NCBI GenBank assembly: GCA_022478985.1
Contig: JAKSZP010000157.1
Span: 62,001 to 126,000 of the forward strand
Origin: Massospora cicadina
Taxonomy: Eukaryota > Entomophthoromycota > Entomophthoromycetes > Entomophthorales > Entomophthoraceae
DNA length: 64,000 nt
Direction: 5' to 3'
The position numbers and the translations under genes are program-made. Position 1 is the stretch's first letter; every line of letters starts with the position of its first letter. Below the pieces are notes generated by a model. The model worked only from the letters and a program-made list of their open reading frames with translations. It was not told the origin of the DNA and ran no database searches. This document shows, piece after piece, positions 9,331-56,634 of the stretch.

Positions 9331-9339
9331 GCAATCCCC

Positions 9340-17149: not shown

Positions 17150-18225
17150 TGTTAAAAACTGGGTTTTTCGCTGATAGTTCCTAGTTTTTAATTGAACAGG
17201 TTCTTTTATGAGCATGATTTTCTTTGCTTGATAGATATATATGATCAATAATATAATGTCTTTATCTGTAGTTTATAGATAAATCAGATGTGGTTCAACG
17301 TAGACTTGGAATAATCCACAAAATACTGATTATGTTGAAAATTAGGGACTTCATCCCTATTCCGGATGAACTTAATCCACTATAAGTTTCAGAGGTTCCT
17401 GGCCTTAGTTTCCATAACGCAGAGTTGGCGGAATTCTATGTCAAAAGATCTGATTCTCTTATAAGGATATCTGATCCTTAATATTTATCCACACAAAAGA
17501 GTCTACAATTATTGTACTGCAACAATAATTAGTTGAAGAGAAGGTGAACTTAAGGATAATATTTGTTATTGTATTAACATGTTTTATCATACAATGCTAG
17601 GGAATTTATAGGGGAAATGCAGCACCCAACTCCTCAGTTGGCGCCTCAGCCATGAAATGAGAGCCGTTGCCATTAAATTCCCTATGATATCTCTACCATC
17701 ATTGGCCTTCTCCATTGGGATAGGCATTCCTACATTAAATATCCCAAGACTGAAAATGGAAAAGTCAGAAATCGTATCCTTAATGTTCCTGCTCAATCAC
17801 AGCAAACCAATCACATTGGACTAGCAATCTTCTTAGGTAATAAAACTCTTTGCCCATTATAGCAGGTCGCAAACCAACTGATTGCTTCATTAGTTTCAGG
17901 TGGCACTACTCGCCTAACAACTGCTGATTCAATTACCAATTAGTCGGTGATGAACTTAATTGATCCCAATTTGTACACCTAATAGGTAAATATCGATCAA
18001 CTATCAGATGTCCCAATTTCTTTGGCAACTCTGCCTGATGAGATCTTGAGCTTTTGTGCAATTGATCACCAAGGGATTAAACCCAGTTAATTACCCAAAT
18101 TTCTTGGACTTTATTAACCCAAAAATGAGGTCAACTAATAACCTATTCATTCACTTGTGGGACTTATCCCCTATTGAACCAGAAGATAACCTAGGAAGCT
18201 AGAAAGATGGGAAAATATACCAACA
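17150..18225 (-). repeat. 5' LTR of GyM
   Basis: A 1076-bp LTR starting TGTTGGTATATTTTCCC at 18225 and ending TTTTTAACA at 17150, with TGTT...AACA ends. It shares order and motifs with the LTRs at 27195-28298, 49498-50673 and 61994-63143. A conserved TATA region is at 17600-17640. The DNA beyond 18225 is GyB pol, so GyM inserted into or beside GyB. Confidence 0.82.
17600..17650 (-). promoter_or_regulatory. LTR core promoter of GyM with inverted repeat
   Basis: On the minus strand GCGCCAAC, a six-base spacer and GTTGGGTGC form a near-perfect dyad just before CCCCTATAAATTCCC, a TATA box. The same arrangement occurs in three other LTRs of the family (27801-27850, 50224-50270, 62579-62630). Transcription start was not determined. 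Confidence 0.55.
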
Positions 18226-18239
18226 CATACCCTCCAGAT

Positions 18240-27065: not shown

Positions 27066-27194
27066 TGTTGAAATCTGCACTTGGACATCAGGTTTTGGAT
27101 GCACATGTTACTAAAATCAAGATAATAAGGCACAGGTTGAGGACAGTAGCCTTAATAATCACTTGCAGACTAAAATCATCTTGAAAAGAGGTAT
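27066..27194 (-). repeat. Remnant of GyH 5' LTR
   Basis: These 129 bp lie between the GyH primer site and the first base of the GyD LTR, and end in AACA on the minus strand like other LTRs of this group. The rest of the LTR is absent here, as expected if GyD inserted into it. Sequence similarity to other LTR 3' ends is weak. Confidence 0.45.
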
Positions 27195-28298
27195 TGTTGG
27201 GATTTTTGCAACTAGCCAGCATCCTAGAAAACCTGCTGGATCTCTATAGGATAAGTTCAACTAGCAAATGAATCAAATATTAGTTGACCTCAATTTTAGG
27301 TTAATAATTTCTGAGGACTTTGAGTAATTTGCTGGGTCTGGATTCATTGGGGATCAATCTGTGCAAATGCTTAAGATCTCTTTAGGCAGAGTTGCCAACG
27401 AAATTGGGGCATCTGATAGTTGGTCGCTGATTAACTTTCAGGTGTACCAATTGGGATCAGTTGAATTTCATTACCAAATGGGATGAGTTGGGTTTCATTG
27501 CCAACTGATTGGGAATTTAATTAGCAGTTGTGAGGCGAGTGATGTCACCTACAACTAGAAAATCAATCAGCTGGTGCATGATATGCTATAATGGTTAAAG
27601 AGTCCTATTACCTAAGCAGGTCGCTAGCCAGATGTGATTGGTTCACTGTAATTGAGTGAGAACACTAAAGACATGTTTTCTGGCTCTTTCCATTTTAGGT
27701 TTGTGGGATGTCCAATGGAAATTCTTACCCAATGAAGAAGACCTTCGCTTGTAGAGAAGTCATAAGGAAACTAATGGCAATGGCTGTCGTTTAATGGCTG
27801 AGGCGCCAACCAAGGAGTTGGGCGCTGAATTCCCCCTATTAATTCCCCAGTAGCTCTTTTTTTAAAAGCAGCTTTGGTCAGTTTGCAAAGAATCATATAT
27901 TTATTCTATTCATCTTCAATTAATTTGTTGTGGTATACAATAATTGTGAACTCTTTTGTGCATATAAAGAGTAAGAATCAGATATCCTTAGATGTGAAGC
28001 AGACCTTTAGTGCAAATCTTCGCTGACTCAGAATTATAAGAACTAAGGCTAGAACTCCTGATCTGAGAGTGAATTAAGTTTAACATGAATAGGGAAGAAG
28101 TCCCTAAGTGTCAAATCAGTATTTCGTGGATTATTCCAAGTTTAGAGTTTGACCAACTACTGGTTTAATTATTCACATACAAATATTTGTTGGCATACTA
28201 TTATCCCTCATATATAACTATCAAAAAACATGAATCATGTTCATACTGTACATGTGCAGTTAACTTTTGAGAATTATCAGTTGAGCCAGAGTTTAGCA
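27195..28298 (+). repeat. LTR of GyD (5' LTR)
   Basis: It starts TGTTGGGATTTTTGCAAC and ends GAGTTTAGCA, 1104 bp. In reverse it matches the GyM LTR block by block (for example GTTGACCTCAATTTTAGG and the GGCGCCAAC...GTTGGGCGC promoter region). A primer-site-like sequence follows. It is therefore a 5' LTR of a plus-strand element, or a solo LTR flanked by chance sequence. Confidence 0.78.
27801..27850 (+). promoter_or_regulatory. LTR core promoter of GyD with inverted repeat
   Basis: GCGCCAAC, spacer CAAGGA and GTTGGGCGC form a dyad directly before AATTCCCCCTATTAATTCC, where the TATA box of the family reads TATTAA. It is the best-preserved copy of the dyad. Confidence 0.5.
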
Positions 28299-28318
28299 TA
28301 TGTTGCTCACAAAAGGGG
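28299..28318 (+). other. Primer-binding site of GyD
   Basis: TATGTTGCTCACAAAAGGGG follows the LTR end ...TTTAGCA and keeps the GCTCAC core of the GyM site. Between 28319 and 28700 I see no gag; the DNA is very AT-rich with repeated ATTCAATTTT-like words. Confidence 0.45.
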
Positions 28319-31341: not shown

Positions 31342-31359
31342 AAGGTGGTAGAACATGGA
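31342..31359 (+). repeat. Target-site duplication of HALF-1 (left copy)
   Basis: AAGGTGGTAGAACATGGA, 18 bp, is repeated exactly at 33239-33256, immediately after the element's 3' end. Confidence 0.95.
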
Positions 31360-31371
31360 CTTCTCTTTAAC

Positions 31372-31393
31372 CGCTCAAAGTCACTTTTGAGCG
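31372..31393 (+). other. 5' stem-loop of HALF-1
   Basis: CGCTCAAA, loop GTCACT and TTTGAGCG form a perfect 8-bp stem 12 nt from the 5' end of the element. The LINE has a stem of equal length in the same position (48969-48950, minus strand) with four compensated base pairs. Confidence 0.8.
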
Positions 31394-31446
31394 ATTTTAA
31401 ATTTAAGTTTATTTATCCACAGCCATCTGCCCAAACCTATTCTTTG

Positions 31447-33139
31447 ATGTCCTTGGCTCTGCCGCCTGCCACCCCAGTGTGGGGCAGCAGTGCACCCCCA
31501 CCTAGCGTTTTCCGCCCTGCAGGAAAGCGCGTTTGGACAGGTTCAAACAGCCCGCCCACTGCTTCCAACCGTTTTGTCCCCCCACGAGACCTAGCACTCC
31601 ACCTGGCGCGCATCCACCCTTCTCGCCCCCATCCTCTCGCCCTCCCTCGCTCTGCTATTCGCTATTGCCTCAGAGTGGACTATGGACGTTTGTTCCCATA
31701 TGCCAATAAGGCAATTATTGACCTAGCCACTACAGCCTTTGCGCCAGCTGGCTTTATAGACTTACGCCCTTTTAAGGGCTACTTTGACGTTGGGTTCCAA
31801 TCTGAGGAGGATGCTGAAGCGGCAGCACAAACTCCTCTAATTTATAAAAAAACCCCCATTCCCACAACCCGTACTCGCCTCCCTTCAGACACCACGCTAG
31901 TGGTATCCTTTGCAAATCTTCCATCCCAGGTTTTGTATGACCAGTTGGTCGTGGGGCTCATGGCTTATGGCACTCAGCCCAACCTCATCTTTGCCATTCC
32001 TTCTGGTGCAGAACGCCTTGCTGCTCCTCGTGCAACAGCCACCATCATACCACACCACCCTACCATAGCCCAACAAATCCCACCCCGCGCTAGTGTGGCT
32101 GCAGCACCTGATCATTTCTTTTGGGCTCGGGTCGATAATGGTAGGCAGATTTGTTCCCTCTGCTTTGGCCTCGACCATGCAAAAGAGCGTGCCCTAAGGC
32201 CAAATCTGCTGATGCAGCTTCTGAGCCCCCCTCTGGAGGTTCAGTATGGGGCGCTTTGCTGCCCCCTCCCACCCTCAATCTCGTTCAGTGGGCCCACATG
32301 GAAAATCAGCCCCACCCAAAACCTCCATCCTCACTCTCCCACCTAAATCTACGCCAGCCAATCAGAGCAATGCTTGGACCAACATTAGTACCCAAGCAGC
32401 TGCCCATTCGCCCAATTCTACCCACTCAAATTTAAATGCCACTATTCCAGTGAACCAAAATCCATGGGATCTATTGGCTGAAACTGACGAATCAGGTAAT
32501 ATCCTTATTAGTAAGCATACAGGTCAACCTCTCTGCCATGGCGATTATGGTCAGGCAGAATTTTTCCTCCCCGACTTTGATGAAACCCCTACCCCTCGCC
32601 ATTCTGCTCCTCTACCCAATACAACCCCCTTCCAAAGTGACCACCAGCTCGCCTTAGCTGCGGTGGCCTCTCCTCATTGCCCAAAACTACGCACCGCGGT
32701 GGCCCAGTCAGTGGCTCAGCTCCAGCATGGCCTGCCCACCATCTTCTTCCCCCCTGACTTCCCTGAATCTCCCTGCAGTGACATCTCAAAATTATTTGAT
32801 GATGCTGAAATTGCTGTTATGAATGTCGCAACACTTGCTTCATTCAACCCCTCAGCCAAAATCACCCGCCACAGTATCTCCCTTTTCACCCAACTTCCTG
32901 AAGCCCGCAAAGAAGCTGAAGTTCTCCTTGCAGCTTTTGTTGAGACACTTTCCCGTCATTATCTTGATGCAGAAGTGGAAAACTCCTACTACGCTGACCT
33001 CAGCCCCCACTATGCAGATGCCCCAACACCCTGGCTCTCTGCTCTGATCCAGTACTGCAACCAACACCCCTTGATTGAGGCGGGTCTTTCTGAAAACCAA
33101 CCCCCCGACCCCTCCTCACCCTCTGCCATGGTGGGTTAA
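31447..33139 (+). pseudogene. ORF1-type RNA-binding protein of HALF-1, frameshifted
   Basis: The ATG at 31447 opens a frame that would give about 560 residues if two frame changes (near 32180 and 32290-32350) are allowed for. The N-terminal motif PPATPVWGSSAPPPSVF is followed by a globular part with YGRLFPYANKAIIDLA and GYFDVGFQSEEDAEAAA, equivalent to SWLDLGFESKIAADEAA in the LINE ORF1. Then comes FFWARVDNGRQICSLCFGLD, a CCHC knuckle lacking its last Cys. The C-terminal ~290 residues (32246-33139) include a helical segment (LFDDAEIAVMNVATLA, then EAEVLLAAFVETLSRHY) absent from the LINE ORF1. Likely role: RNA binding and RNP formation. This is the best-preserved coding sequence of the plus strand. 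Confidence 0.75.
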
Positions 33140-33202
33140 GCAGTTTCTGCTTCCCACCTGGTTAGTAGTTTGTTTTGCCATTTTGAGTGTTGTGATCGGT
33201 AC

Positions 33203-33236
33203 TGTCCATCCCCTGGTCGGCGTACCTCAAATAAAT
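33203..33236 (+). other. 3' tail of HALF-1 shared with the LINE
   Basis: TGTCCATCCCCTGGTCGGCG followed by TACCTCAAATAAAT. The LINE tail (43748-43714, minus) reads TGTCCGTCCCATGGTCGGCC followed by TTCCCCGCAATAAAT: about 28 of 35 aligned columns are identical. A matching 3' end is what a stringent LINE RT recognises. Confidence 0.82.
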
Positions 33237-33259
33237 CGAAGGTGGTAGAACATGGATTT

Positions 33260-34049
33260 TTAGAAGATAATGTAATAATTGAAGCCTTAGTACTACATTA
33301 AATTCATGAATATACCGTTTAAAATTTTATTTCAAGTTGCCACTAGTGGCAAATAGTACCTCAAACCATAAGAATACAGCTTACCGCTTGGTAAAAGCCC
33401 TCATTTTCATGGAACACTTTGTATATGGATGTAATAGGCCCTCTGCCTGCCAGCACTGGAATTTCTAAGTAAAACATAGTGTTCATAGACTACCTGATGA
33501 AGTGGATTGAAGCAAGAGTTGTTAATGACTTAGTTGCAATGACCGCTGCTAAATTTATCATTGAATGCATAATCCAGTGTCATGGTTTCCCTCAGTTCAT
33601 CCTCACAGTCAACAAAAATTAGCTTCACTTCCCATTTTCTACCTAAGCTGAATGAATTGATGTTGTTCTGCGGATAATTAACGAGACCATATCACTCAAG
33701 TTTATTAGAACCAATGAGAAAGTCATGGTACCCTTATGAACACACTTATAAGAATATGACAGACTGGCCTTTGGATCGGAGTTCACTTTTGCCCATCGCT
33801 GTTTTTACATGCAACATTAGTTACCATTTTGCAATTGTAAAGGGCCCATATCACCCCTTATATGTAAGCCCAGACTTACCTCCATTATATACTTGTGGAA
33901 AACCCTCTGGTGTGGAATCACAGCACTATCTTTTTTAATAACTTCTACGTTGATAAGGCTTCAAAATGAAGCCTACTCAACCAGCTTGGCGAAAATGGTT
34001 GGATAATGATACTTATCTTTAATAATAAACTAATGTCCTGTCACATTAC
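33260..34049 (+). pseudogene. Integrase remnant of GyD
   Basis: The core begins WNTLYMDVIGPLPASTG (about 33411-33462) with the first catalytic Asp. It continues FIDYLMKWIEARVVNDLVAM and IIQCHGFPQFIL, then loses the DNGxxF motif to decay. After a stop, LLPIAVFTCNISYHFAIVKG resembles the A.faYN.s.h block. It is bounded on the left by HALF-1 and on the right by GyA2 at 34050. Confidence 0.7.
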
Positions 34050-35329
34050 TGTAAGTCTGGGGGGAGCGTCCCCTGGGCTTGGAATGAGAGGCGTTTCCGT
34101 TTCAAACCAAGAAAGAACCAAAAAAGGCGACCATCCCCCTCATCTCTCAGGGGACCTCGCCCATGTGGTTGAAGAGTAGTGGGGTATGGCCTACCCCTTA
34201 AAGGTCCCTCCTCCAATCTGTATCCCAACAACTAAAAAATTGTTTCAGTGAAGTTAGTTGCTTTGCGCTGAAGTTTCAGTGGAGAGGGACTGACACAGAA
34301 AAAATGAAGTAAGTCCCTTCCAGACTCTGGGTTCAGGTTCTGCTCGATTTACAGAGTTGTATGAACCCTTCCCTCCTATGCAGGGGCCCAGTTCCACTGA
34401 AATTTGGAAAATTTTCAATTGAACCAAGGAAACCAGTGGCAGTTAAGATGGGTGGCTCTAATCCTTTCGCAGCAGCTGGGACTGTCCCTACGTGGAATGG
34501 CCCTGGGAGGTTCCCACCACTCATCAAGTAAGACACCACTTCTAGGACAAGTGCAATCACAATAAAAACGTGATTTGGGCATCAGAGGATGAATTGACTT
34601 CAATTCATTCCTCCGCTGACATTGCATCATAAAATTTAAATAACTCCCTTTAAAGTTTCATCATTCTAAGTCCAAAAATTATGCCCTCACGCCCATGCAT
34701 GCCACCTTATTCCCTAAGTGACCGAGTATATAAATCAATAATCCCCAAAAGGTATGATTGTTGGTCACTTCTTTTCTTATTTTTTAAAGAAAATTTCCCA
34801 CTGAATAAATTAGTTTGATGGAAATTTTTCCTGTTATTAGCCACAAAGCTAACCCAAAGATGATTTTTGGGTTGCATAATGACTGGCTCTTGTGGCCATC
34901 ATTACACAATGTTGCCTACTGTTGTACGTTGGGTATACATACCCATGGCATCTTAGACATTTCCCTCTGTATGAAGCTTTTTGATGACAGGATCTGTTAC
35001 CCTTGTTGGAGGCTTTACCTACCCACTGGGTGAGATTTTGTAATCTTGCCATCTGCCCTCTCTCCAACAACCCTGTGGCAAAACTCCGTCCCATTGTTTA
35101 AGCGCAACAAGTTTCTGCCTTCAAATCCACTGGCTCTGTATCAATAAAAACCTGGCTTTGTGCCAGTGTGTTTTTAAAATCATCTCAAGTCTCATTTGTG
35201 GTTCACTCACCTTCTGACTCATCTTTAAGTCATCTGAGCAGCAGTCCCTTGTCATTTTTGCTTACCTTCTGGGTGCTCATGTACCTGAATGGCAGGCCAT
35301 TTTAAAGCTCATTTGCCACTTTCATGACA
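34050..35329 (+). repeat. 5' LTR of GyA2
   Basis: It begins TGTAAGTCTGGGGGGAG and ends TTTCATGACA, 1280 bp, against 1283 bp for the 3' copy. Internal sequence begins TAATCAACTGAGC, the same leader start as GyA1 (TAATCAACCATCC). Confidence 0.88.
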
Positions 35330-36899: not shown

Positions 36900-38090
36900 C
36901 CACTGTACTAAAACATTTTGGAGGATAACGAGGCATTGGACACATGGTTGAATGATATACTCAAGAAGGGTTGGGTAATTGAGATACGTCCCCCTTTGCC
37001 TCGCCCATGGTCTTAAAAAAGCCAATGGGATGGTGCATTCCTGCATGGACTATGGGCACCTTCTTAATATCATCGTGCATGATCCCTACCCCATTTCTCG
37101 GAGCAAACCATCAAGCATGTAATTATAAAAGTCTCAAGTGCTATCAAAGCTCAAGCATATAAATGCCAATTAACCAAATTTGAGTGGCTGAGGGCCAGTA
37201 ATGGCTGACCGCTATTTAAACAAAAATGTATATTTCAGCTTCAGGTAATGCCTTTTGGGCTTAAAAATGCCCTGCAACGTTTCAACGGATGATTGATAGT
37301 GTGCTGGGTGCCGTCAGATTCACCTGCATGGTGGCATATGAAGTTAATATTATAGTCTATTCACCTATGCCCAATCAGCATGAGAAGTATTTGTATGCAT
37401 TACTGGCCGTTCTGCATAAAGTGGTTCTTTTTGGTAAGCCATCCAGATGTGAATTCTATTAGGAAGAAGTTATTTTCTTGATTAACAGTTCTAAAAGACG
37501 GATATGTTGTACCACACAGTTAACTTGAAGCCATATGTGAAAGGCACGCCCTCATGACCCAGAAGCTTTAAGGAGCTTTCTTGGTACCAAATCTCCCTTT
37601 AAAAATTCTCCCCCACACTCTCACATATGGACGCGCTGCTGCACCCCTTGAGGGTGAAAATGCTTTTTATTCAGGACTCCTGAATGCAACAGGCCTTTGA
37701 CTCAATTAAGGAGTTGTTTGTATCGCCATCTCCTTAAACATGCAGACCCCACTAAACCATATAACATAGCATTCAATGTGTCTTCCGCCGTAGTGGGGAT
37801 ATTCTGCTTCAAGAGCATGATGGTTTAAAACACTATGTCACCTTTTTCTTCCTAAAGTCCAATTCTACTGAACAGCCTTGGCCATCTATGGCAAAAATGT
37901 TGGCCACTGTGGTGTGGGCCCTGACTAACTGTCGGTACCTTTTTCAGGGTGCTCAACATGAGGTAACCTTATGATTGTATCACCAAGCTCTCCTGTACTT
38001 TTTGCAAGCTGCAGAAGTTGGTGCACCTATAAGCGCAGAAATACTGTGATTTATGCAGCTTCAACTTCAAGTACAAGTCATGAAGGGAGC
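36900..38090 (+). pseudogene. Reverse transcriptase and RNase H of GyA2
   Basis: Blocks recognised are MPFGLKNALQRF (about 37250-37280), AYEVNIIVYSPMPNQHEKYL (37337-37395), where the YxDD box reads YEVN, and a connection segment near 37590-37730. RNase H remnants follow to about 38090. Many stops and frame changes; no active site remains. Confidence 0.75.
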
Positions 38091-38339
38091 ATTGAATGTG
38101 ATCCCCAACGTTCTGAGTTGTAACCAGGTGCTCTGTCCGGTGGAGGCAGATAGAGAGACCTTATCACAGTGATACCACTGACTCAAAATTTAGCTATTGC
38201 TCCTCCTGCAATTTGAGTGGCAGATGTGGGTTCAGACGCACCCCTGGCTTTAAGGGTCCTAGAGGCCCAAACAGCTCATGTGGAAGGGTTGAAGTTGTTG
38301 GAGCAGTTAGCTTCCTAATGCACAAGCACTTGCTCTAAT

Positions 38340-39330
38340 CTTTTGGTTAAGGGGCTTATCCAACTTAGGTCAAACTTTTAAGTGCCTCCCCTCCTCCATG
38401 ACGAAGTCATCCTTGCGCAACATGACCACCCTGAAGTGGAGCATCCAGGCAATAAAAGGTGTCTTGACCTAATCAAGAGGACAAATAACTGTCCAGGCAT
38501 GTCAAAGGATATTCTGGCATGGATCACAAATTGTGTTACATGCATGTGAGTTAAGCTGGACAGGTCATTAAATAACAGTCTCTTCCGCCCTCTGCATTAG
38601 GTAGAGGGACCATGGACTTCTGTGTCAGTAGATTTTATTGTTGAGCTTCCAAGCTAAATGGATTTACAGCCGTCATTGTAGTCAAAGATCACTTCACCAA
38701 ATGTGCCCTCTTCATACCCTGTTCCTCAGCCATCACCTCTGAGTAGATGGCCAGACTGTTCTTGAAGCATGTGTTTTCTATGTTTGGCTGCCACAGGAAA
38801 TCATCTGTGATAACGGCGCTCAATTTATGGCTTGATTCTGGAATGAACTTCTGGCGATTTAAAATAATACCATAAAATTTGACTGTGTACCATACCACAA
38901 TCAGATGGCCAAACTGAGCATGTAAATCAAATTCTAGAGCTATATCCAAGCGTTATGACGCGGCAGCTCAGAACACTTGGGCGGACAATCTTCCGCTCAA
39001 CCAGTTTGCATATAACAATGGAAACCACGCTTCCATTGGCTTATCCCTTATATCCATTTTAAGTTATAACCCTTCATTTTTAGTAGGACCGTGCCTTCAT
39101 CTGAGAGGTGCTGGCTGCAGCCACCCATGCACAGTAAATCCGCGCCACACAGTATTTGATCTATGAACACTTAACCAAGACTATTATGACTATAAGCAGT
39201 TTGCCAACTAGAAGCGTCTTCTGACGAACAATAATAATGTGGGGTCACATGTTATGCTGGAGATGCGCCACATGAAGATCAGGTGTCCTTTCAAAAATTT
39301 TGAGCAAAGTTTCAGGCCTCATTTAGTAGA
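38340..39330 (+). pseudogene. Integrase of GyA2
   Basis: The zinc-binding part shows HPGNKRCLDLIKRTNNCPGM and ITNCVTCM (38445-38550). The core starts SVDFIVELPS (38624-38652), a stop follows, and QSDGQTEHVNQILELYPS (about 38900-38950) contains the catalytic Glu region. The order and spacing equal those of GyA1. Confidence 0.78.
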
Positions 39331-39429
39331 AGACTGACCTGAGGAATGTTGTGTTTTGATTGAAGTTGCTGGTCTATTGAAAGCAACACCCTTTATTCCA
39401 TATGTTGCAGTCGCCCCATTCAAGGGGCC

Positions 39430-39660
39430 AGTTCCTCTGGAGCCTGAACCAATCATTATTGAGGGGTCAGAAAAGGCCGAAGTTTATGCTATCTTTGCTT
39501 TCATTGATCATGGCGATCAGTTCAATATTTAGTCACATGTAAAGATTACCCTGCCTATGAGAACAGCTAGTTGGTGCTTGGGACTGAGAAAACTGTTCTT
39601 TGTTAGTCAAAACGTTCCACAATTTCCACAAAGAGGCTTCACACATTTACTAAAAAGTCA
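39430..39660 (+). pseudogene. Chromodomain remnant of GyA2
   Basis: The frame yields IIIEGSEKAEVYAI and then VQYLVTCKDYPAYENS with a stop after it, the degraded form of VQYLIAWKGYLAYDNSWV in GyA1. Two key Trp positions are changed (one to Cys, one to stop). Confidence 0.7.
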
Positions 39661-39744
39661 CAGCGCTAATGGTGATCAAGCTCCTAAAAGCTCACAAGAA
39701 CTTTGCCTGTACCCAGTCTCCTGGCAGTGGTGCTCCCGCTCTTA

Positions 39745-39760
39745 GAAAAGGAAAGGGTAA
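39745..39760 (+). other. Polypurine tract of GyA2
   Basis: AGAAAAGGAAAGGGTAA lies directly before the TG of the 3' LTR, matching GyA1. Confidence 0.72.
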
Positions 39761-41043
39761 TGTAAGTCTGGGGGAGAGCCCCCCTGCTCTTGGACTGGGA
39801 GGCGTTTCCATTTTAAGCCAAGAAATATCTGAAGAGACCGGCCATCCCCTCATCACACAGGTGACCTCGCCCCTGTGGTTGATGTGCGGTGGGTTACGGC
39901 CTACACCTTAAAGGTCCCTCCGCCCATCACCATCTTGATAATTAACAAATTGTTGCAGCACATCAAGTTGGTTTGTGTTGAAGTCGCAGTGGAGAGGGAC
40001 TATGTGGGAAAATTGAAAGAAAGTTCTTCTGGTGCCAGATTTGGGTTTCAGCAGATCTATAGAGGTAAATAAAACCTTCCCTCTTGTGCAGGGCCAGTTC
40101 TACTGAAGTTTAGAAAAATTGCAAAATGAACTGAGGAAACTGAGGGCGGTTAGGATAATTGGCTTGAATCCTTTTTCAACCAGTTGTGACTGTCCCTACG
40201 TGGAATGGCCCTGGGAGGACCTTTTCACTCGTCAAGTGATATGGCGCCATTCAAGCAGATGCAATTTTGATAAAAATGTGATTCAGGCGTCAGAGGATGA
40301 ATCACTTCAACCAAGTCTTCATCCAATGTGGCCTCATAAGTTAAAATATTTACCTCTATATTCCTGTCATTCTAGGTCAGAAAATCGAGGCCCCTAGCCC
40401 ATGCACGCCACTTTTTTCCCTAAGAATCAAAGTTAATAAGCAATCATACACTAAAGGTATGCTTGTCAGTCAATTTCTTCGCTTATTTTAAAATAAAAAT
40501 CTCCTACTGAATAAATTAGTTTGCTGGAAAATTTCTCAGATACTAGACACAAAGCCAACCCAGGTATGTTCTTTGGGTTGTGCAACAATTGGGCCCTCGT
40601 GACTATCATTACAACAATGTTGCCTACTGTTATGCACTGGGTATACTATACCCTGATATTCTTAAACATTTACCTCTGGCTGAATCTATTTGACGTCAGA
40701 TTCTGTCACCCTTGTTGGAGGCTTTACCTCCCCACTGGGTGAGATTTTGCAATCTCGCCATCCACCCTTTTGCTTACAGCCCTGTGGTGGAACTCCATCC
40801 TGTTGTTGAAGCGCAAAAAGTTTCTGCCCCCAAATACAACGTCTCTGTGGTAATACCAACCTGTCTGTGTGCTGGTGTGTTTCTTACAATCATCTTAAGT
40901 TACTATTTATGGTTCACCCACCTTATGACCCATCATCAAGTTGTCCAAGCAGCAGTACCCTTGGCCTATTGACTTATCTTATGGGTGCTCACGCTCCTCA
41001 CCTGATAGGGCAGTTTAAAATCTCATTTTCAGTTTTCATGACA
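39761..41043 (+). repeat. 3' LTR of GyA2
   Basis: It begins TGTAAGTCTGGGGGAGAG and ends TTTTCATGACA, and aligns over its length with 34050-35329 (e.g. the block TGTCCCTACGTGGAATGGCC in both). Confidence 0.88.
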
Positions 41044-43691: not shown

Positions 43692-43707
43692 ATAATCTTC
43701 ATTTAAA
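43692..43707 (+). repeat. Target-site duplication of the LINE (left copy)
   Basis: ATAATCTTCATTTAAA, 16 bp, is repeated exactly at 48984-48999 beyond the 5' end of the LINE. Confidence 0.93.
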
Positions 43708-43713
43708 TTTTAA

Positions 43714-43748
43714 ATTTATTGCGGGGAAGGCCGACCATGGGACGGACA
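43714..43748 (-). other. 3' tail of the LINE shared with HALF elements
   Basis: On the minus strand TGTCCGTCCCATGGTCGGCC then TTCCCCGCAATAAAT. See HALF-1 33203-33236. An upstream CACCTGGT block is also common to both 3' UTRs. Confidence 0.8.
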
Positions 43749-43882
43749 CTTCCAAATATGACTCAGACGAGACAAAACTCAGTACCAGGTGAGGCACCCC
43801 AGAGAAGCGATGCTATCTCTTGTTGCCAGCGGGAACGCCACTTATGGGAAGGGGGAGGGAACGTGTGTAGGGGGCGTAGCCA

Positions 43883-46800
43883 CTATTGAGCACGTGTGGA
43901 GGAAGGGGTCTGATTTGATGAACCAGACTGGGAACCAGGAGGAGACCAGCTGCCGGCGACGTGGTGGGAGATAACCAAACATCCATGCTTGAAAGTGATC
44001 CACCAAATGAGACTGGAATCTGTGGACAGCTTCAGGGAGGGTGGGGATGGATCCGGCGATGGCATCCAAGACAATCGTGTGGATAGTCCACATGGCGATT
44101 GCAACCACCAGAGCACGAAGGGAGGGTGGGAGGGGGAGGCCATTGATGAAGCAAACATATCTCTTGACAGACTGAAGGGATGTGTTTGATCCTGGCCTAG
44201 CAGACGTTGGACTTCGCGCCATACTACTTTAGAGGTGGTGCACTTCTCCAGGCGGTGAAACAGCGTTCCATACTGGCCACACACGACACAGGATGAGTGT
44301 AAAGCATTAGAGCGCTCAGCTGTACGATACACCCGCCTCAGGCAGCGCCACACATGGGAGCGGACTTGAGGCTGCAACAGAGGATGGTGTGCGTATTTCC
44401 AGATAGTCTTTTGGGTCTCAGTGGAATAAGGGATGTCCATCATGTCCAGGTAGTCCACCCTGGATAGGACTTGGGGTCGAATGGGGATCACGCCATCATG
44501 GATGGGTAGCCCCTGTACCTCTTGTGTGAACTGAGGAGAGGGGCGGCCCCTTCGGGTTGTATGTCCACTAATACAAATTCTCCACTCTGCGCTTCGCATG
44601 GAGAGTAGGATTTGTTTGTAGTGGGTTTTGGTCCCGTGAGGACCTGTGGCTGATGTGTGTGATGCGAGGTATTTCATCAGGGAGTGGGGGTTTGATGGAT
44701 TGTTGAGGCCCAAGGCTCGGGAGAAGTTGGAGCAGGCCGCGCGGGACCAGTGTTGGGATGGGAGTGTAGGAGCAGTGACGGCCGCAATCCAGGTGCCTAG
44801 GATCTTGGCGGCATGGGCTTTGAAGTCAAGTAGGCCCATGCCACCATGATGATGAGGGCCAAACATGACCTCTAGCCATACTGGTGGAGGGCGGCCTGAC
44901 CAAAGCCAACCTTGTAGCAAAGCATACAGGGATTTGTATAAAGCTTGGGGAGAAGGGGATGGCGTGGGCTCCAAACCAGACTTTAGATAGGAGCATAGAG
45001 TTGGCAAGAAAAACCCTGCCAGTGAGGGTAGTAGGGTGGGCTCTGAGAGAGGCGATTCGCTTCGTCACATTGTCCAGTATATGGCCCTCCATTACTGCTG
45101 ACGCGTATCCTCCTGCCTCCAACCACACGCCCAGATGGCGTACCGGTCCTATGGTAGGTCGCGGCACAAAGGGGAGCACCAGTGGAGCGGTGTGTTTTGA
45201 GTTAGTAAGGCGTGGACTTGGGCGAGCAGCTGGGCTGGGTTGGGAACTACTTGTTGGGGCCCAGCAGTTCTGAAACCGACCAAGGAGGATGATTTCGGTT
45301 TTGGAGGCGTTCAGTGCCACGTTGCTTACCCGGGAATATTCCTGGATGAGGGCTTCAAGCGCGCGTGCATCTTTATTATTAGACACCCCCACCACGCAAT
45401 CATCTGCAAATGCCATCATCTTGACTGGGGTTTGGCCTGGCACATGGACCCCAGTGAGTTGGGCATTCACATTTCGCAGTGGTGGGTCAAGGCTGAAGTT
45501 GTATAAGAGTGGGCTCATGGGGTCCCCTTGTCGCAGGCCCCTTTGAGGATGGACTACTTCCATTAGGAAACCTGGGCCGCGCATAGCCATTGTTGCAGAT
45601 TCCATGAGCAGCATCACCCAGTTAATGAAGCGGGGAGGTAGGCGGAATTGTTGGAGGCAGGCCCTAAGGTATTCCCAGTTTACTCTATCATAGGCCTTTT
45701 GTTGGTCCAAGAATACAAGTGCCCCAGAGGCTGTGGACTGACACACATTAGCCACAGAGTGCACGTTATCCCAAATCGACCTTCTGGGGATAAAACTGAA
45801 TTGTTCTGGAGAGATGGTGGCAGATGCTACAGTCCCTAAATGGTTAGCCATGATTTTTGTTAAAATTTTGGTGTCTGTGTTTGTTAGAGAAATGGGGCGC
45901 CAGTTGGCTAAGTCTAGCCTATCCCCTTTCTTGAAGAGTGTGACTGTAAAAGCCTCATGTCCTCCTGGTAGGAGGCGCGTTTCCAACAGGCTTTGGTTGA
46001 GTGAGGCTAGCAGCAATGGGGATATGTATTTAAAATATTTTTTGTAGAACTCATATGGAATGCCATCTGGGCCTGGGCATTTTTGGTTTGGCGCACCGCG
46101 AATGGTAGTCCATAATTTGTTCAGAGTAAATAAATTTATTATTTCTGGGTATCGGAAAATGGTGCGGATATGAGCTCTGTCAAGAAATTCTGCCATTTCA
46201 GCCGGCTGAATTGGTTTGGCTTGGTATAACTTGGAGTAATATCTTTGCATTTTGATTGCCACTTTGGCCGAGTGTCCACGATAGAATTATCCGATCTTTG
46301 CACCTGTGTGCAGGCCACAATCTGGCGTGGTGCAAAATTTTTTTTGAAGAAGTATGCGGTGCACTTGTCACCTTTAGTGATGCATGTGGCCCTGTATTGG
46401 ACACAAACCCGATGTTTGTGTTGCCTTTCAAGTGCGTTGAGGTGGGCTGCTGCCTCTGCCCACTTCTGGCCCCATGCAGGGCTATATCCTGAGGCTGGAA
46501 TATTGGACTCCAAGTGGGCCAATTCCACCAGCACATGCGATATAACTGCCGATGTGGCTCATGAGCGTCTGGATGAGAGATGGCGATAGTGGCGGATGGT
46601 ATCTTTTTTGAAAGTTGCCCATGTGGAAATGGGGTCCATGCAAAACGGTGCAACAAACAATTTTGCCAAAGTTGCCTCTTCCACCCATGTGGAAAATCCT
46701 GGCGATGCAAGCTCTGGGGGGCGGATTTTGCACCAATGTGGGGCCTTTGCAACTGTGATGGGTAAGTGGTATGTTATTGAGACCAGTCAGTGGTCGGAGA

Positions 46801-47475
46801 ATTCCATTTTCATTGTTTTGAAGTGGGAGATGTGGGGTTGGAATTTCGCCAGCGCTAGAATAAGGTCAATGTGGGTCATGGACCTTAATTGGCCGTTGTG
46901 GATGTGGGGACGCATCATGTTTTCGAGCAGTGGGGCATGTCATGGCAGCGCATCCATTAACCCAAGGGTGGCTTTTAGAACACGTAGTTCTACGTGACCC
47001 TGTGGGGCGTGGGGTGAGGGCAGCCACCGGTCTATTGGTGAGGTTAGCCAACAGTTCATGTCACCAATTAGGAAAGAATCAGGGGGTAGCGGGAGGGATT
47101 TGACCGACGAGAAAAATTCCTGATGCTCTTGTGCACCGTTTGGGGCATAAATGTTGACAATTGTGTGTGCAACATCAGCCCATGAGAAAGTGACAACGAG
47201 CACTCGGGCATTTAGGAATGTTTCTGAAGATGTAAATTTGAAAAAATTGTTTTTCTGAATTAGCACCCCATAGTGCTTCAACCAAAAGGATAGGGATGGT
47301 AGGAGCATTGTTTTCCAAGCATCCTCATAACCTCGTGGACAGTGGGTTTCCTGGATGGCCAGGATATCCATAGGTAAATTATTTTGTAAAAAACTCAGTT
47401 TCCTAGCCCAGGATGGGGAGGCCTTGAGTCCAGCGATATTCAGTGTCCCTAGAGTGAAGGTTTCCCCCTTCGCAA
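43883..47475 (-). pseudogene. LINE ORF2: endonuclease, reverse transcriptase, zinc domain
   Basis: The start follows a stop near 47477 and reads FTLGTLNIAGLKAS. The APE endonuclease has ILAIQETHC, VNIYAPNG and FLIGDMNCW (47371-46940). A stop at 46940 and frame changes occur up to 46534. The RT (46262-44826, 478 residues, uninterrupted) has CPGPDGIPYEFYKKYF, LANWRPISLTNTD, FIPRRSIWDN, GALVFLDQQKAYDRVNW, GLRQGDPMSPLLYNFSLD and MMAFADDCVVGV, so all three catalytic Asp residues are present. After a further shift the frame 45007-43883 ends with CVVCGQYGTLFHRLEKC, a zf-RVT type finger. It nicks the target and copies the RNA at the nick. Confidence 0.93.
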
Positions 47476-47616
47476 TTTAGGTGCAAGGGGGTGGGCCCCC
47501 TGGCCCACCAGCCTCTTCCAGGTCCCCACGGGCTTTCACAGCAGCGCGGGTATTAGCAGCAACGCTATCATGGTTTTTGTTAATTTTTGCGGAAAGAGTC
47601 ACGTTAGCTTTGGCCT

Positions 47617-48895
47617 TCACTTTTTGTTTTCCCGACGTCGGACGAATTTTTTGTGGTGCGGATAAGTTCGGTGCACCGTCAAGTGGGGCAATAAAATTTT
47701 TTCGGTTGGGATAGGTCCCAAGTCAGTTTCAACTGGGGCTTGGGTGCAGCAATTGGGTGAGATCAAATCTCCCATCGGATCCTTGGATTGAGTGGCCCGT
47801 TCAGCTTGGGCCTCCCAATCTGATTGGGTGATGGATTCCCAAGTTGCTTCCGCTGCAAAGGTCTCCATGTCCTCCTGGCATTGTGAGTGTGGGATGGTGG
47901 TGGTGACCTTGGCCGCTTCCTTGGCCGCGGTCCTATGGGCCTGCTTGGCCTTCTTCTGCTCCTGTGGGGAGATGGGCTTTACCAATAGGTAGCAGCCTTG
48001 TGCTCCCCACGGGAAAGCCTCTTTGGTGCTTACAGTTGGTTTGTAGTGCGCCTCTCCACTGGCCATGGCTGCCGAGGGGTGCTCTTGGAATGTAACGCCC
48101 TCTTTAATGGGGCACACATGTGCCTTATGGCCAAACGCGTCACAGTGGGTGCAAATGGGGGGCGCGCTGTCCACGGTTACCCAGAATGGGTGGGTGGTGT
48201 GCCCTGCAATGTCAATAAAGGTGGAGTGCGGGATCTGGGTTAGGTCCTTCGCAATCTCCTCAGTTGGGGTCAGAACTGCAATGGCTTTGCCGGTGCACAG
48301 GTGTGGCATCAGCGTGAAACATTGCATTTCAAAAGATTGTATTTCACTGTATATGGTGAGACCATCTTTCAGGTGTTGCTCCAAAAGGTCACATTTTACC
48401 ATAGTAGGCAAAAAGTCAAATGTGAGGAAAATTTGGTTTGATTTTGTCCATCTGGTGCATTTAGTTTTGACGACCCATTGCTCTTTGGGGAGGTTGACCA
48501 CTATGCGCACCGCTGCAGCCTCGTCTGCTGCTATTTTGCTTTCAAAACCTAGGTCCAGCCAACTGCACGACATGGAGTGAGGTGCAACGTACACCGCGGT
48601 CAGGAAAATTTTGTGTACATCTTCACAAAATTTTTCCCATAGGGCTAATTTTTGGATGTCCAGATACACACGGACTCCGAATTCCACCGACGAAAGTGGC
48701 TGGGAATGTGGCGTATTGATGTACTGGTTGCATCATGCTTGCCACGCGAGTATCTCCGGGGAAATTGTGACCGCCAGTTTTTTTAGATTTTTTTCTATTC
48801 CGCCGGATTCTCCGGGGCGTTTTGAACGTTAGAGGCCGCGGGCCTTCCGCCTGCTCCTCTTGCCTTGCTTGCCCAACTGCTCCCAGACATGGGCG
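47617..48895 (-). pseudogene. LINE ORF1: RNA-binding protein with CCHC knuckle
   Basis: The uninterrupted part 48687-47617 gives 356 residues; its first codon is GTG, and the true N-terminus lies upstream (a possible ATG near 48890, MSGSSWASKARGAGG) with a stop and frame changes between. The globular part includes SWLDLGFESKIAADEAA and QIFLTFDFLPTMV; the knuckle is CTHCDAFGHKAHVC (C-x2-C-x4-H-x4-C); the tail is basic (KKFVRRRENKK). It corresponds to the N-terminal and central parts of the HALF protein, but its C-terminal ~165 residues do not. Confidence 0.82.
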
Positions 48896-48949
48896 CAGAC
48901 TAATCCCTCAATGAGATTATCAAACTAGATTTAGTCTTGAATTGAATGG

Positions 48950-48969
48950 GTTGCAAAAGTGTTTGCAAC
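48950..48969 (-). other. 5' stem-loop of the LINE
   Basis: On the minus strand GTTGCAAA, loop CACT and TTTGCAAC form a perfect 8-bp stem 14 nt from the 5' end. Compare HALF-1 31372-31393. Confidence 0.8.
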
Positions 48970-48983
48970 GAGAAAGAAAAGTC

Positions 48984-50695: not shown

Positions 50696-52597
50696 TCTCT
50701 CTTTCACTGAAATAGCTTAATTGAAGCCAAATTCAGATTTTTCTAAAATACAAAAAAGAACGAATGATCAAGCCAAAGATTACTGATTTGATGCCATTGA
50801 CGCCTGCTGCCCCAGCTTGGGGTGGTGGTGCGCCGCCATCTGGCGTCTTTCAGCCACCGCTGAAGTGCGCCTGGGCTGGCTCTGCTAGCCTTCCTAATGC
50901 TACCAGGCGTAGTGTCACCCCTCATGACCTGACTCATCACCTTGCAAGTTCCCAGGTGGCTCTCTGGAGCCTGAGGTGCTCCCACAAAGCAATTTGCATT
51001 TCAGTCTCCAGGTCAAATATGGGAACCTTTCCCATATGCAAGCGCAGCCATCATTGAGATGGCCACAGCAGTGGTTAAACCCGCTGGATATATTGATTTC
51101 CGCCCCTTTAAGGGGTATTTTGACCTCAATTTCTGTTCTGAGGCTGATGAAAATGCAGCATCTAAGCTGCAATTAATTTATAAAAAAATCCCCCTCTCAA
51201 CCGTTAATTCCCCAGATCCTTAATGGGGCCACTTTGGTAGTCCAGTTTGCTGGGTTGCTTTCCCAACTTTCCCCCAAACGCCTCCGCCATGAGCTCATGT
51301 AGGGTTTGGCCATTATTGGCACAGCCCCCGTGTTGTAATTCGTGGTTTTAAATGGAGTGGATCGTTTGGCAGGGCTGTGCACCTTTGTGACAATCTGCCC
51401 ATTTCATCGTGACACCCACCTCACGATTCCCCCTCACATGGTGACCAGATCCTCCCCTGGTCACCCATTCTAGGCGTATGTTGAGAATGGCTGCGCCATT
51501 TTCCCTTTGTGCTTCAAGTTTAATCACTCAAAGCACAAGTGCCCTATGGCTTCCACCTCCTCTGCTTCCACTATTCCTTTCTCCAGCATCAGGCTGGCAG
51601 CCAGTTTGGCTCAATCTTTCAAATGAGGCTCAATACTCCCACCCCCAACCTCAGCAATTCTGGTGTCACTTCCAAGGTGACAGCCAATCAAAATTTAAAA
51701 TTTTTTAAAAAATCTAACAATTTGACCAGATTACAGAATTCTGAGTTAATGGCTGACTCAGTTCCAACTTAGCTGCCATGGTCAATGGCACTTGGCTAAT
51801 CAGCTTCTGTCACTGCCCAAATTCTGGTGGCTGGCCCAGTGCTGGCTGAATCCAATCCATTTGAGGCTCTCAAATGGATCAACGAGGATAAATGGCTGTA
51901 CCATGTCAAGAAAGATTTCTCTTTAAGGTATTTTTATGTTGATCCTCCCAGACTGTGACCCACCATTTTTCCCATAAAACGGTTTTAAACTTACATAAAT
52001 ATTAATAAAATGGAATTTGAGGCTGCAGCTGCCGCTTCCAACACCCTACTTCACCAGCAACTTCATGGGGCGATGGAGCCCCTTGTTGAGGGTATTTCTA
52101 TCCACAAATTTACCATGATTTTGAGGAAGATGCAAAATATGAAATTGAGGAGCTCGCTACTGGTGAGCTGCGCTTGCATTGACGCTGCAAAAACTTCTCT
52201 ATTTAACCATAATTATCCCAAAACCTGCCAGCGCATCAATTTTTCACTTGTGTGCCGGCTCTCATCACTTTTGCTGAGCATCAACTTGCTCAATACATTG
52301 AGGCGATGAACACTGATGGCATTATAAATTAAGGAAACCCACAATTATACCTCCTTATGCCCCATGTCACTGATGCTCCCACCACGATGCTGTCCACCAT
52401 GGTCTGTCAGCTAAAGCAGGCGCCAGACAAAAGTTTCCTTAAAGCTTCCTCGCCTTCTGATATGGCTTCCTAGGCTGTTAGCTGAGGTGCCATATTAGGA
52501 ATTTTTAATTTCTAATAATCCCTTTATTTGGCCCATTTGCAAATAAAGATGCGTTGAGGCTCCCCCTTTTGGATTGGGCACCACTAGTGCTAAAATA
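50696..52597 (+). mobile_element. HALF-3: ORF1-only non-LTR retroposon (about 1.9 kb), decayed
   Basis: The 95-nt leader begins CTCTCTTTCACTG, like HALF-2. The 3' end (TCCCCCTTTTGGATTGGGC, ACC, then AAAATA) is a worn version of the family tail. The length is 1902 bp between imperfect 17-bp repeats. The 5' stem-loop is no longer recognisable. It is the most degenerate of the three copies. Confidence 0.75.
50791..52480 (+). pseudogene. ORF1-type protein of HALF-3, broken
   Basis: From the ATG at 50791 the frame reads MPLTPAAPAWGGGAPPSGVF, parallel to HALF-1. Then frames alternate: RPFKGYFDLNFC-type sequence near 51100, and a knuckle IFPLCFKFNHSKHKC near 51493-51537 with its first Cys changed to Phe. 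The C-terminal domain is represented by EFEAAAAASNTLLHQQLHG (from 52013) and MPHVTDAPTTMLSTMV (about 52360-52405). Confidence 0.68.
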
Positions 52598-54713: not shown

Positions 54714-56634
54714 GAACTCTCTTTCCTCTTGGCGTAGCTTTCTGAGCAAATTATACAGAAAACAAAGAAAGTAAATTCAATCGCTTGCCTTAGTTTTGCT
54801 CTGATGTCCTCAGATTCTCCGCCAGCTCCCCCAGTGTGGGGCAGCAGCAAAACTCCCCCCTCCATTTTCTGTCTGACAGGGAAACGTGCTTGGACTGGAT
54901 CTCCCAGTCATAACAAACCCCTGGGACAATTCGTTCCTCCCAAGGTTTTTAACGGTCACTTCACTCATACCCAAGTGGTATCTTGTTGGCCCCTGGTGCT
55001 CCCCCAAAGCAACATGCGTTTTGGTTTTAGGGTCAACTATGGGAAACTTTTTCCTTACCATGGCCAAGCCATTATTGAAATGGCTCAGGCGGTGATGACT
55101 CCTTCTGGCTTTATAAATTTCTGCCCCTATAAGGGGTATTTCAATCTCAGCTTCACCTGTGAAGCTGATGCTACCACTGCGGCAATTGTGCCCCTTGTAT
55201 TCCAGGGTACCCTCTCCTCACAATTTGGACCTGGCTCCCAGAGGATACCACTTTAGTGGTCCAGTTTACTGGTTTTCCCATCCTCCTCCCCCTGAGCTGC
55301 TCCACCAGGAGCTGATAGACAGTTTGGCAGCCTATAGCTCCAACCCCATCTTATAATTTGTGGTCCCAAATGGGGCCACACGCCTCGCTGGGCCTCAGGC
55401 ATATGCCACAATCAGACCTGAATTTTTAAAATTGCCTTGTAGATTCCCCCTCGCGTCATCATTCCTTATGACCCTGACCATCTGTTCTGGGCCCGCGTCA
55501 AGGGCGGATGGACGATCTGTCCACCATGTTTTGGGTTGGACCACTCAAAATGCAAGTGCCCTCCTTAGCTGCTTCTGATGGCTCAGACCTTTTTGTCAGC
55601 TGGCTTCCATCCACCGCCCACCCCGCGCCAGCTCTGGTATGGGGTACAATCCTGCCCTCCCCTCCCCCAAAGCCTGTTGCTGCAGCTGCACCTGCAGCCA
55701 CCAATAAGCCTCTTCCTCGCCCCAGTGCCACACACAATCCCTCCAATCAAGCACCAGATCGGACCCCAGTCTGACCCCATGCTTCCTCCAACAAATTAAC
55801 CAAACCTCATTCATATACTAATCCCCCAATTCAATACAACCAGAACCCATAGGAGTTATTAGAAATTGACAAATCAGGTAATCTCATTTAAGGACCATCT
55901 CTGCAAATTGAGAGGTTTGTTAATGCATAATGGGACGCCAAATTCCCCCTCTTTTATATGCCCCTCAGTCAAATGCCAAAATCATTTTGCAGTGACCACC
56001 AGCTTGCAGTCAAAGCAGCTGCCACGCCATATTGTCATCCCCTTCAAAAATCTGCTACCAAATTAGTGGCGATGCTCATAGGATGTATTCCCCCTTCCGT
56101 TATCCCCTCAACCCTCACTCCACAAAGTAAGATTACAGTGAAGCAAATGCACAAAAATGTCAATAATGCTACCCAGATTTGGTAACTGTAGCATGGAGCC
56201 CTAAAGCTAAGATTAGCCGAACTAATATTGCTACATTCATTAAACTTCCTGACGCCCACTTTAAAGCTGTAAAGGGTTTTAGCCAAATATATTAGCGCCA
56301 TTTTCTTAGTTGGCAATTTCCATGAGATACCAATCAATAGTGATATCAAACCACATTCCGTGATGCCTTGACGCCCTTGCTCTCCACCTTGACATGTGCC
56401 CTACTCAGGGATGAGGAGGCTGCTGCTGAAGATGAGCCCCCCAATCCCCCTTTCCCTTCCGCCATAGTTGGATAAGAGGTTTGCCGCTTCCCACCTGGTT
56501 GGCTGTTTTCGTTTGGTGTATATCATTCAATCTGTTCATTTTGGGAATTTTGTTTGAATCGTTTAATTACGTTAGTTTTTATTTTTTAGTTTTTGTAATG
56601 TCCATCCCCTGGTTGGCTTACCTCAAATAAATTG
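54714..56634 (+). mobile_element. HALF-2: ORF1-only non-LTR retroposon (about 1.92 kb)
   Basis: Between exact direct repeats. The leader (90 nt) begins GAACTCTCTTTCCTC, and the 3' end is TGTCCATCCCCTGGTTGGCT followed by TACCTCAAATAAATTG, nearly identical to HALF-1. It carries one ORF1-like coding region and nothing else. It is inserted in the GyE protease-RT region in the same orientation. Confidence 0.87.
54804..56475 (+). pseudogene. ORF1-type protein of HALF-2, broken
   Basis: The ATG at 54804 begins MSSDSPPAPPVWGSSKTPPS and the frame stays open to 55256 (YGKLFPYHGQAIIEMAQAVM; CPYKGYFNLSF). Later frames show LFWARVKGGWTICPPCFGLD followed by HSKCKC (about 55486-55557), a complete C-x2-C-x4-H-x4-C knuckle. 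The C-terminal domain is frameshifted but ends PFPSAIVG, like SPSAMVG in HALF-1. The 3' UTR is longer than in HALF-1 (about 160 nt). Confidence 0.75.

What the first reader, a model, noticed from the sequence alone, without database searches (positions are those of the whole stretch)
31360..33238. A family of ORF1-only (half-LINE) retroposons, three full-length copies
HALF-1 (31360-33238), HALF-3 (50696-52597) and HALF-2 (54714-56634) have the same length (1.88-1.92 kb), leader length (87, 95 and 90 nt), start of the protein (PVWGSS-type), CCHC knuckle, unique C-terminal domain and 3' end, and each is flanked by a 15-18 bp target-site duplication. None contains endonuclease or RT. Established parallel: mammalian HAL1 elements (L1 derivatives with only ORF1) and RT-less Drosophila HeT-A. 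A fungal-type genome carrying such a family as a distinct, full-length lineage is, to my knowledge, not a standard annotation category. That the three copies decayed to different degrees implies repeated mobilisation over time.
Basis: partly seen in the sequence, partly recalled or inferred. Interest (0 to 1): 0.88.

Follow-up and report, generated by a model that had tools for sequence, protein, structure and literature searches.

The report
Half-LINE jumping genes in a fungus
A giant-genome fungus that infects cicadas carries many copies of a jumping gene that keeps only the first gene of a LINE retrotransposon, and the copies are probably moved by separate, complete LINEs whose RNA ends they resemble.

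Summary
HALF-1 and HALF-2 are full-length, duplication-flanked elements of about 1.9 kb with only an ORF1-type protein. HALF-3 is related, with an imperfect duplication, but its 3' end is not demonstrably the same. The host is Massospora cicadina. In its assembly, 38 of the 40 scored HALF-1 matches (best only, window copy included) run end to end; 37 of 38 have target duplications (mispaired flanks 0 of 200). None of 20 read with 1.5-kb flanks continues into EN/RT. Complete LINEs of two families carry a different, distantly homologous ORF1 in the 34 copies that could be judged (29 LINE-A, 5 LINE-B). HALF-1, HALF-2 and both LINEs share a pyrimidine-rich start and a 3'-terminal motif that can form one hairpin with compensated stems; HALF-2 has the LINE-B stem. 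In two loci a HALF and a LINE share one 18-bp target, present three times. The N-terminal part of ORF1 diverged under protein-level constraint. Best reading: an old, protein-coding half-LINE lineage mobilised in trans by LINE EN/RT; HAL1-like in function, but not by descent from either LINE family seen. Mobilisation itself is inferred.

The parts
31342..31359 (+). left target-site duplication of HALF-1
   Evidence: 18 of 18 identical to 33239-33256
31360..33238 (+). HALF-1, ORF1-only retroposon, full length
   Evidence: 38 of 40 scored genomic matches, itself included, share these ends; TSD
31372..31393 (+). 5' hairpin starting at nt 13 of HALF-1, after a pyrimidine-rich start
   Evidence: 9-bp stem, 4-nt loop; LINE-A has an 8-bp one at the same place; none by this test in the window copies of HALF-2 and HALF-3
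31447..33139 (+). ORF1 of HALF-1, frame broken between about 32180 and 32270; CCHC knuckle about 32152-32193
   Evidence: one of 20 sister copies has an uninterrupted frame, 568 aa from first Met
33140..33238 (+). 3' UTR of HALF-1, 99 nt, no poly(A)
   Evidence: similar to HALF-2 and LINE-A 3' UTRs, 0 of 1000 shuffles each
33198..33226 (+). possible 3'-terminal hairpin of HALF-1 (one mismatch)
   Evidence: the minimum-energy fold of this tail is a different one
33239..33256 (+). right target-site duplication of HALF-1
50696..52597 (+). HALF-3, heavily decayed related element; 3' end not shown to be shared
   Evidence: protein similarity; TSD 16 of 18; 3' UTR not significant
54714..56634 (+). 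HALF-2, decayed copy of an older HALF subfamily
   Evidence: 28 of 40 scored genomic matches, itself included, span it; TSD 17 of 17
56594..56622 (+). 3'-terminal hairpin of HALF-2 (LINE-B stem type)
43700..48981 (-). LINE-A, complete element: ORF1 47617-48732, EN 46940-47476, RT 44826-46286, C-terminal part 43883-45064 with a zf-RVT match below Pfam's cut-off; candidate helper type
   Evidence: TSD TTTAAATGAAGATTAT
43725..43753 (-). 3'-terminal hairpin of LINE-A
   Evidence: tail pattern in 12301 genomic places, backward control 0

Best explanation
HALF elements are an old, protein-coding, RT-less retroposon lineage. Inferred cycle: the RNA makes its own ORF1p (N-terminal domain, CCHC knuckle, own C-terminal part), which packages the RNA; LINE-encoded EN/RT recognises the 3'-terminal hairpin that HALF RNA shares with LINE RNA and copies the RNA at an EN nick by target-primed reverse transcription, leaving duplications of mostly 15-18 bp and no poly(A). 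Shown: anatomy, common ends, duplications, many copies (thousands of unverified word-match candidates), a shared 3' motif that can pair with compensated changes, shared target use in two loci, constraint on the N-terminal part of ORF1. Inferred: that ORF2p acts in trans, that ORF1p is needed in cis, and which LINE serves which HALF (HALF-2 with LINE-B by stem type).
For: Same ends in 38 of 40 scored matches. TSDs in 37 of 38, mispaired flanks 0 of 200. HALF-2-type copies: duplication score 10 or more in 8 of 10, mispaired maximum 9 in 90 pairs. 3' UTRs of H1-H2, H1-LINE, H2-LINE similar, 0 of 1000 shuffles each. 3' hairpin on 28 tails: 90.6% of cells paired (shuffled 81.5), 31 double-changed cells (16.0), 0 of 500 each; slid versions pair 21-49%. 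Stem core GUAA/UUAC in 9 of 10 HALF-2 copies and in the LINE-B tails. Two of 38 HALF-1-type copies are TSD-HALF-TSD-LINE-TSD at one target. Codon positions H1 vs H2, N part: 40/30/67% mismatches, p 2e-9; H1 vs H3 41/34/65%, p 1e-6. A 587-aa single-frame relative from an unnamed source has the same end motif SPSAM.
Against: No experiment shows trans-mobilisation. On 28 tails the two covariation measures least inflated by relatedness are not above shuffles (pairs changed on both sides 4, shuffles reach it 429 of 500; further pair types 9, 186 of 500), and the structure was derived from these tails. Tail folds are no more stable than shuffles (z -1.17, 0.40, -1.27, -0.19), and HALF-1's minimum-energy fold is another one. 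The C-terminal part shows no significant codon bias (p 0.16, 0.11). HALF-3's tail does not match. 5' leaders are not similar overall, and the 5' stem of 12 HALF-2-type leaders pairs no better than shuffled partners (55 of 72 cells; 1489 of 2000). No LINE with the exact HALF-1 stem was identified.
Confidence: 0.78

Rival explanations
1. HALFs are internal deletions of an as yet unseen LINE that has the HALF-type ORF1 (a further family).
For: HALF-type and LINE ORF1s are homologous (P0008 vs LINE-A ORF1 25% over 151 aa, E 1e-11; vs LINE-B about 30%). Only the best candidates were scored, so another family could be missed.
Against: HALF-1 and HALF-2, only 55% identical, share the sequence after the stop codon (0 of 1000 shuffles), which fits one ORF1-only ancestor before their split. 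The LINE copies that could be judged have a LINE-type ORF1 (29 of 30 LINE-A, 5 of 6 LINE-B).
Confidence: 0.13
2. HALFs are retrocopies of a domesticated host gene with an ORF1-like protein (L1TD1-like), not a mobile lineage.
For: Constraint on the N-terminal part and an open 587-aa relative would also fit a host gene.
Against: HALF-1 and HALF-2 carry LINE-like 3' UTRs and show no poly(A) in the junctions printed. There are at least two subfamilies of different age with 6547 and 14641 first-look candidates.
Confidence: 0.04
3. HALF ORF1p has been co-opted as an effector family, as with powdery-mildew EKA genes from LINE ORF1.
For: Precedent in Blumeria (passages of PMC4641428).
Against: EKA genes are described there as truncated ORF1 copies of the LINE itself; HALFs are complete units with their own ends. 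Singleton changes in 20 young copies are even over codon positions (53/59/54), as expected of dead copies. Expression was not examined.
Confidence: 0.03

Closest known systems
HAL1 (half-L1) of mammals
   Same: non-autonomous L1 derivative that encodes only ORF1p (passages of PMC5753468)
   Different: HAL1s arose several times from L1 (same passage). HALF ORF1 is only about 25-30% identical to the ORF1s of the two LINE families seen, has its own C-terminal part, its ORF1-only form seems to predate the HALF-1/HALF-2 split, it lacks poly(A), and it sits in a fungus.
Stringent-type LINE/SINE pairs (eel UnaL2 and its SINE; maize L1 with ZmSINE2/3)
   Same: autonomous and non-autonomous elements share a 3' stem-loop with variable stem (passages of PMC3747384; abstract and outline of PMC4176376)
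   Different: HALF is long and protein-coding; the hairpin evidence here is weaker than in those cases; the host is a fungus.
SIDEs such as Persaeus with Zenon
   Same: internally deleted non-LTR derivatives with a partner LINE (passages of PMC6740152)
   Different: HALF keeps an ORF1 of diverged ancestry with constraint on its N-terminal part.
EKA/AVRk1-AVRa10 families of Blumeria
   Same: large fungal sequence family from LINE ORF1 (passages of PMC4641428)
   Different: EKA are truncated ORF1s of I-superfamily LINEs; HALF is a separate element with its own termini.
TR-GAG LTR elements (recalled; search listing only)
   Same: gag-only non-autonomous retroelement logic
   Different: LTR elements, not target-primed.

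Membership tests
HAL1-like half-LINE (by function) | encodes an ORF1-type protein, no EN/RT | tested here: met
   1 of 20 sister copies has an uninterrupted frame, 568 aa from first Met
HAL1-like half-LINE (by function) | retroposed copies with fixed ends and target duplications | tested here: met
   38 of 40 same ends; duplications in 37 of 38
HAL1 proper (by descent) | ORF1 closely derived from the resident LINE's ORF1 | tested here: not met
   25% to LINE-A, about 30% to LINE-B; further LINE families untested
HAL1 proper (by descent) | poly(A) 3' end (recalled) | tested here: not met
   ends AATAAAT(C) with optional short repeats
Stringent-type LINE partner | 3' stem-loop shared with the LINE, with compensatory changes | tested here: inconclusive
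   shared tail sequence clear for HALF-1, HALF-2, LINE-A; compensated pairs in 3 of 11 and two of five measures within shuffles; no excess stability; HALF-3 not similar
Stringent-type LINE partner | ORF2p of the partner recognises the tail | not testable with these tools
   needs a binding or retrotransposition assay
SINE | short, noncoding, Pol III promoter | tested here: not met
   1.9 kb and coding; Pol III boxes not scanned
L1-clade LINE (the helper) | RT phylogeny inside L1 | not tested
   zf-RVT match below cut-off; named hits include plant LINE-1; M. cicadina reported with 6.3% L1 LINEs (passage of PMC11105155); no tree built

The most novel reading that the evidence does not exclude
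HALF is a long-lived hyperparasite lineage of LINEs that evolved its own ORF1p, with a new C-terminal part, to load LINE ORF2p onto its own RNA, and that switches helpers by changing the stem of its 3' hairpin (HALF-2 to LINE-B, HALF-1 to another), so hairpin stems record a chase between LINEs and their parasites.
Probability: 0.3. Interest if true: 0.8.

Novelty: new variant of a known kind. Interest (0 to 1): 0.62.

Why it matters
Known LINE followers are mostly noncoding (SINEs, SIDEs) or recent derivatives (HAL1). A protein-coding follower that seems old asks directly what ORF1p must do in cis when ORF2p comes in trans. This genome offers many copies, two candidate helper families with distinct hairpin stems, and natural side-by-side insertions at one target, so tail recognition and target choice can be tested. 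It may also help explain an unusually large fungal genome.

Tried and rejected
AlphaFold models of the ORF1 protein were too poor to use (mean pLDDT 42.7; 56.6), so no fold search was made. Scans of bacterial/archaeal genome contigs and of viral contigs, one peptide pattern each, gave no confirmed relative. PDB by sequence: none for P0008. Pfam: no family up to E 0.1 for the HALF-1 frames, nothing near its cut-off for P0008 or P0003. Overall 5' leader similarity is not significant. The shared-variant codon test inside the young copies had 13 shared sites, too few (8/2/3). Processed pseudogenes, simple LINE truncation and chance were set aside for the reasons given in the rivals. Searches for half-LINEs in print (open-licence PMC papers; one search listed 20 of 680, one search listed 12 of 83) showed none in a fungus among the listed papers.

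Full report
What is in the window. HALF-1 (31360-33238), HALF-2 (54714-56634) and HALF-3 (50696-52597) are there. HALF-1 has an exact 18-bp target duplication, HALF-2 an exact 17-bp one, HALF-3 one with 16 of 18 matches. They are related as proteins, but whole-element nucleotide identity is 55% (H1-H2) and 48% (H1-H3, H2-H3), so they are separate subfamilies. The EN and RT of the window's LINE match nothing else in the window; Pfam, run on the HALF-1 frames only, finds no family. On the minus strand at 43700-48981 lies a complete LINE (LINE-A) with ORF1, EN, RT and a C-terminal part with a zf-RVT match below Pfam's cut-off, and with its own duplication.

Where it is from. Protein relatives of HALF-1 fall in 17 clusters; 16 are named hypothetical proteins of Massospora cicadina. 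The seventeenth (P0008, 587 aa in one frame on a 1857-bp contig) has no named source, so whether it is another species or another Massospora subfamily is open. The assembly behind the window has 1,469,884,898 bases, close to the published 1.488 Gb (passages of PMC9584336). A survey reports 6.3% L1 LINEs in this fungus and effectively no DNA transposons (passage of PMC11105155).

Genome-wide test. With HALF-1 as query the first look gave 6547 candidates, of which the best 40 were scored; 38 of 40, window copy included, run from query position 18 or less to 1877 or more, at 95-98% identity besides the window copy. Being the best matches, they overstate full length and youth. Flanks of all 38 were read (20 loci, stretches for 18): 37 of 38 have a duplication by a score that 0 of 200 mispaired flanks reach, 25 of the 37 being 15-18 nt as scored. 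In the 20 with 1.5-kb flanks, LINE pieces occur beside three (L002, L011, L014). In L011 and L014 the HALF's own duplication lies between; in L002 the LINE pieces lie apart from the HALF, which I take as separate insertions. The 20 copies differ by 1.7% on average (1.0-2.4), and 1 of 20 has an uninterrupted frame of 597 codons, 568 from the first Met. With HALF-2 as query there were 14641 candidates; 28 of 40 scored matches, window copy included, span 26 or less to 1907 or more, and all but the window copy are 74-85% identical to it, so this looks like an older burst. Of 10 HALF-2-type copies read, 8 have a duplication score of 10 or more and 6 of 12 or more (maximum 9 in 90 mispaired pairs). 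The same search with HALF-3 did not complete.

Do LINEs carry this ORF1? LINE-A RT gave 113117 first-look candidates, 88 scored. Of 30 loci fetched (window LINE included), 29 show the end of a LINE-type ORF1, EN and RT; one lacks the upstream part. These loci hold only the last part of ORF1; one further LINE-A read in full (L051) has the whole LINE-type ORF1. A second family, LINE-B, found beside a HALF in L011, gave 5076 candidates. Of six stretches fetched, five have a LINE-type ORF1 (34-42% identical to that of LINE-A) with EN and RT; the sixth (L091) has no ORF1 or EN match. The HALF-type ORF1 is a distant homologue: P0008 vs LINE-A ORF1 25% over 151 aa, E 1e-11; vs LINE-B about 30%.

Shared ends. 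LINE-A, LINE-B, HALF-1 and HALF-2 begin with a pyrimidine-rich stretch with TCTTT, and so does HALF-3. In HALF-1 and LINE-A a 9- or 8-bp hairpin starts at nt 13; hairpins of 8 bp or more in that range occur at 1.8% of window positions, and the window copies of HALF-2 and HALF-3 have none. LINE-B has at best a weak one. Twelve HALF-2-type leaders can pair at that place in 55 of 72 cells, no better than shuffled partners (1489 of 2000). Leader sequences are not similar overall. The 3' UTRs of HALF-1, HALF-2 and LINE-A are (0 of 1000 shuffles for each pair); HALF-3's is not. HALF-1, HALF-2 and LINE-A end in AATAAAT-like sequence, LINE-B in AGTTAAATAAAA-like sequence, without a longer poly(A) in the printed junctions.

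The 3' hairpin. The last 50 nt can form one hairpin in HALF-1, HALF-2, LINE-A and LINE-B. On the three window tails 3 of 11 pairs are changed on both sides (36 of 500 shuffles reach that; cells changed on both sides 14 of 500). I then chose 27 of the 64 distinct tails plus the window HALF-2 tail; two of them (L032, L077) are not assigned to an element. 90.6% of cells pair and 31 cells are changed on both sides against 16.0, 0 of 500; slid versions pair 21-49%. But the number of pairs changed on both sides (4) and of further pair types (9) is within shuffles (429 and 186 of 500), the structure was derived from these tails, tail folds are not unusually stable, and HALF-1's minimum-energy fold is another one. 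So a shared 3' motif is firm, the hairpin likely but not proven. Stem types: GGAAG/CUUCC in LINE-A, GGUAC/GUACC in HALF-1, a GUAA/UUAC core in LINE-B and in 9 of 10 HALF-2 copies. The LINE-A-type tail pattern occurs 12301 times with up to 1 mismatch, its backward control 0 times. Short terminal repeats in some HALFs (L002, L003, L006) and some LINE-A copies fit template slippage.

Shared target use. In L014/L051 the order is TSD, HALF, TSD, complete LINE-A, TSD, with the same 18 bp (third copy 17 of 18). In L011 a HALF and a 5'-truncated LINE-B share one target in three copies (third copy 15 of 18). That is 2 of 38 HALF-1-type copies. One of 30 LINE-A loci is followed after about 17 nt by another LINE-A start. 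Two insertions at one nick are what a common endonuclease preference would give; the order of events is not determined.

Selection. Between HALF-1 and HALF-2 the N-terminal part differs at 40/30/67% of codon positions 1/2/3 (p 2e-9), between HALF-1 and HALF-3 at 41/34/65% (p 1e-6). The C-terminal part trends the same way without significance (p 0.16, 0.11). In the 20 young copies singleton changes are even (53/59/54), as in dead copies. So constraint acted in the mobile lineages, at least on the N-terminal part. P0008's C-terminal part is also similar to HALF-1's (26% over 240 aa, E 5e-15 without composition correction in a proline-rich sequence).

Mechanism and standing. The best reading is an RT-less, ORF1p-coding follower of LINEs that recruits LINE ORF2p by the 3' end, as stringent-type SINEs do (passages of PMC3747384; abstract of PMC4176376), while its ORF1p stayed under selection. 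It works like HAL1 but is not a derivative of either LINE family seen here. Trans-mobilisation itself is inferred.

Noticed in passing
L014/L051 and L011: HALF and LINE inserted side by side at the same target, with three copies of the duplication (2 of 38 HALF-1-type copies).
   Followed up: yes
L033: A LINE-A 3' end is followed after about 17 nt by another LINE-A 5' end, again suggesting re-use of a target site (1 of 30 loci).
   Followed up: partly
L088:453-5898: A LINE-B copy appears inserted in the leader of a HALF-2-type element.
   Followed up: partly
L021-L050: Premature stops in LINE-A RT frames are mostly TGA; decay of CGA codons would be one cause.
   Followed up: no
window 9408-9779 and 12820-13137: Chromodomain (plus strand) and RT (minus strand) remnants, probably of Ty3 LTR elements (the Ty3 label is recalled).
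   Followed up: no
window 2498-4165 and 9661-11332; 34047-35329 and 39758-41043; 7073-9801 and 37162-39900; 17130-18231 and 27190-28318: Four pairs of long diverged repeats, the last inverted; not assigned to families.
   Followed up: no
window 53727-54065: Weak CCHC zinc knuckle, below Pfam's cut-off, in a short open frame between HALF-3 and HALF-2.
   Followed up: no
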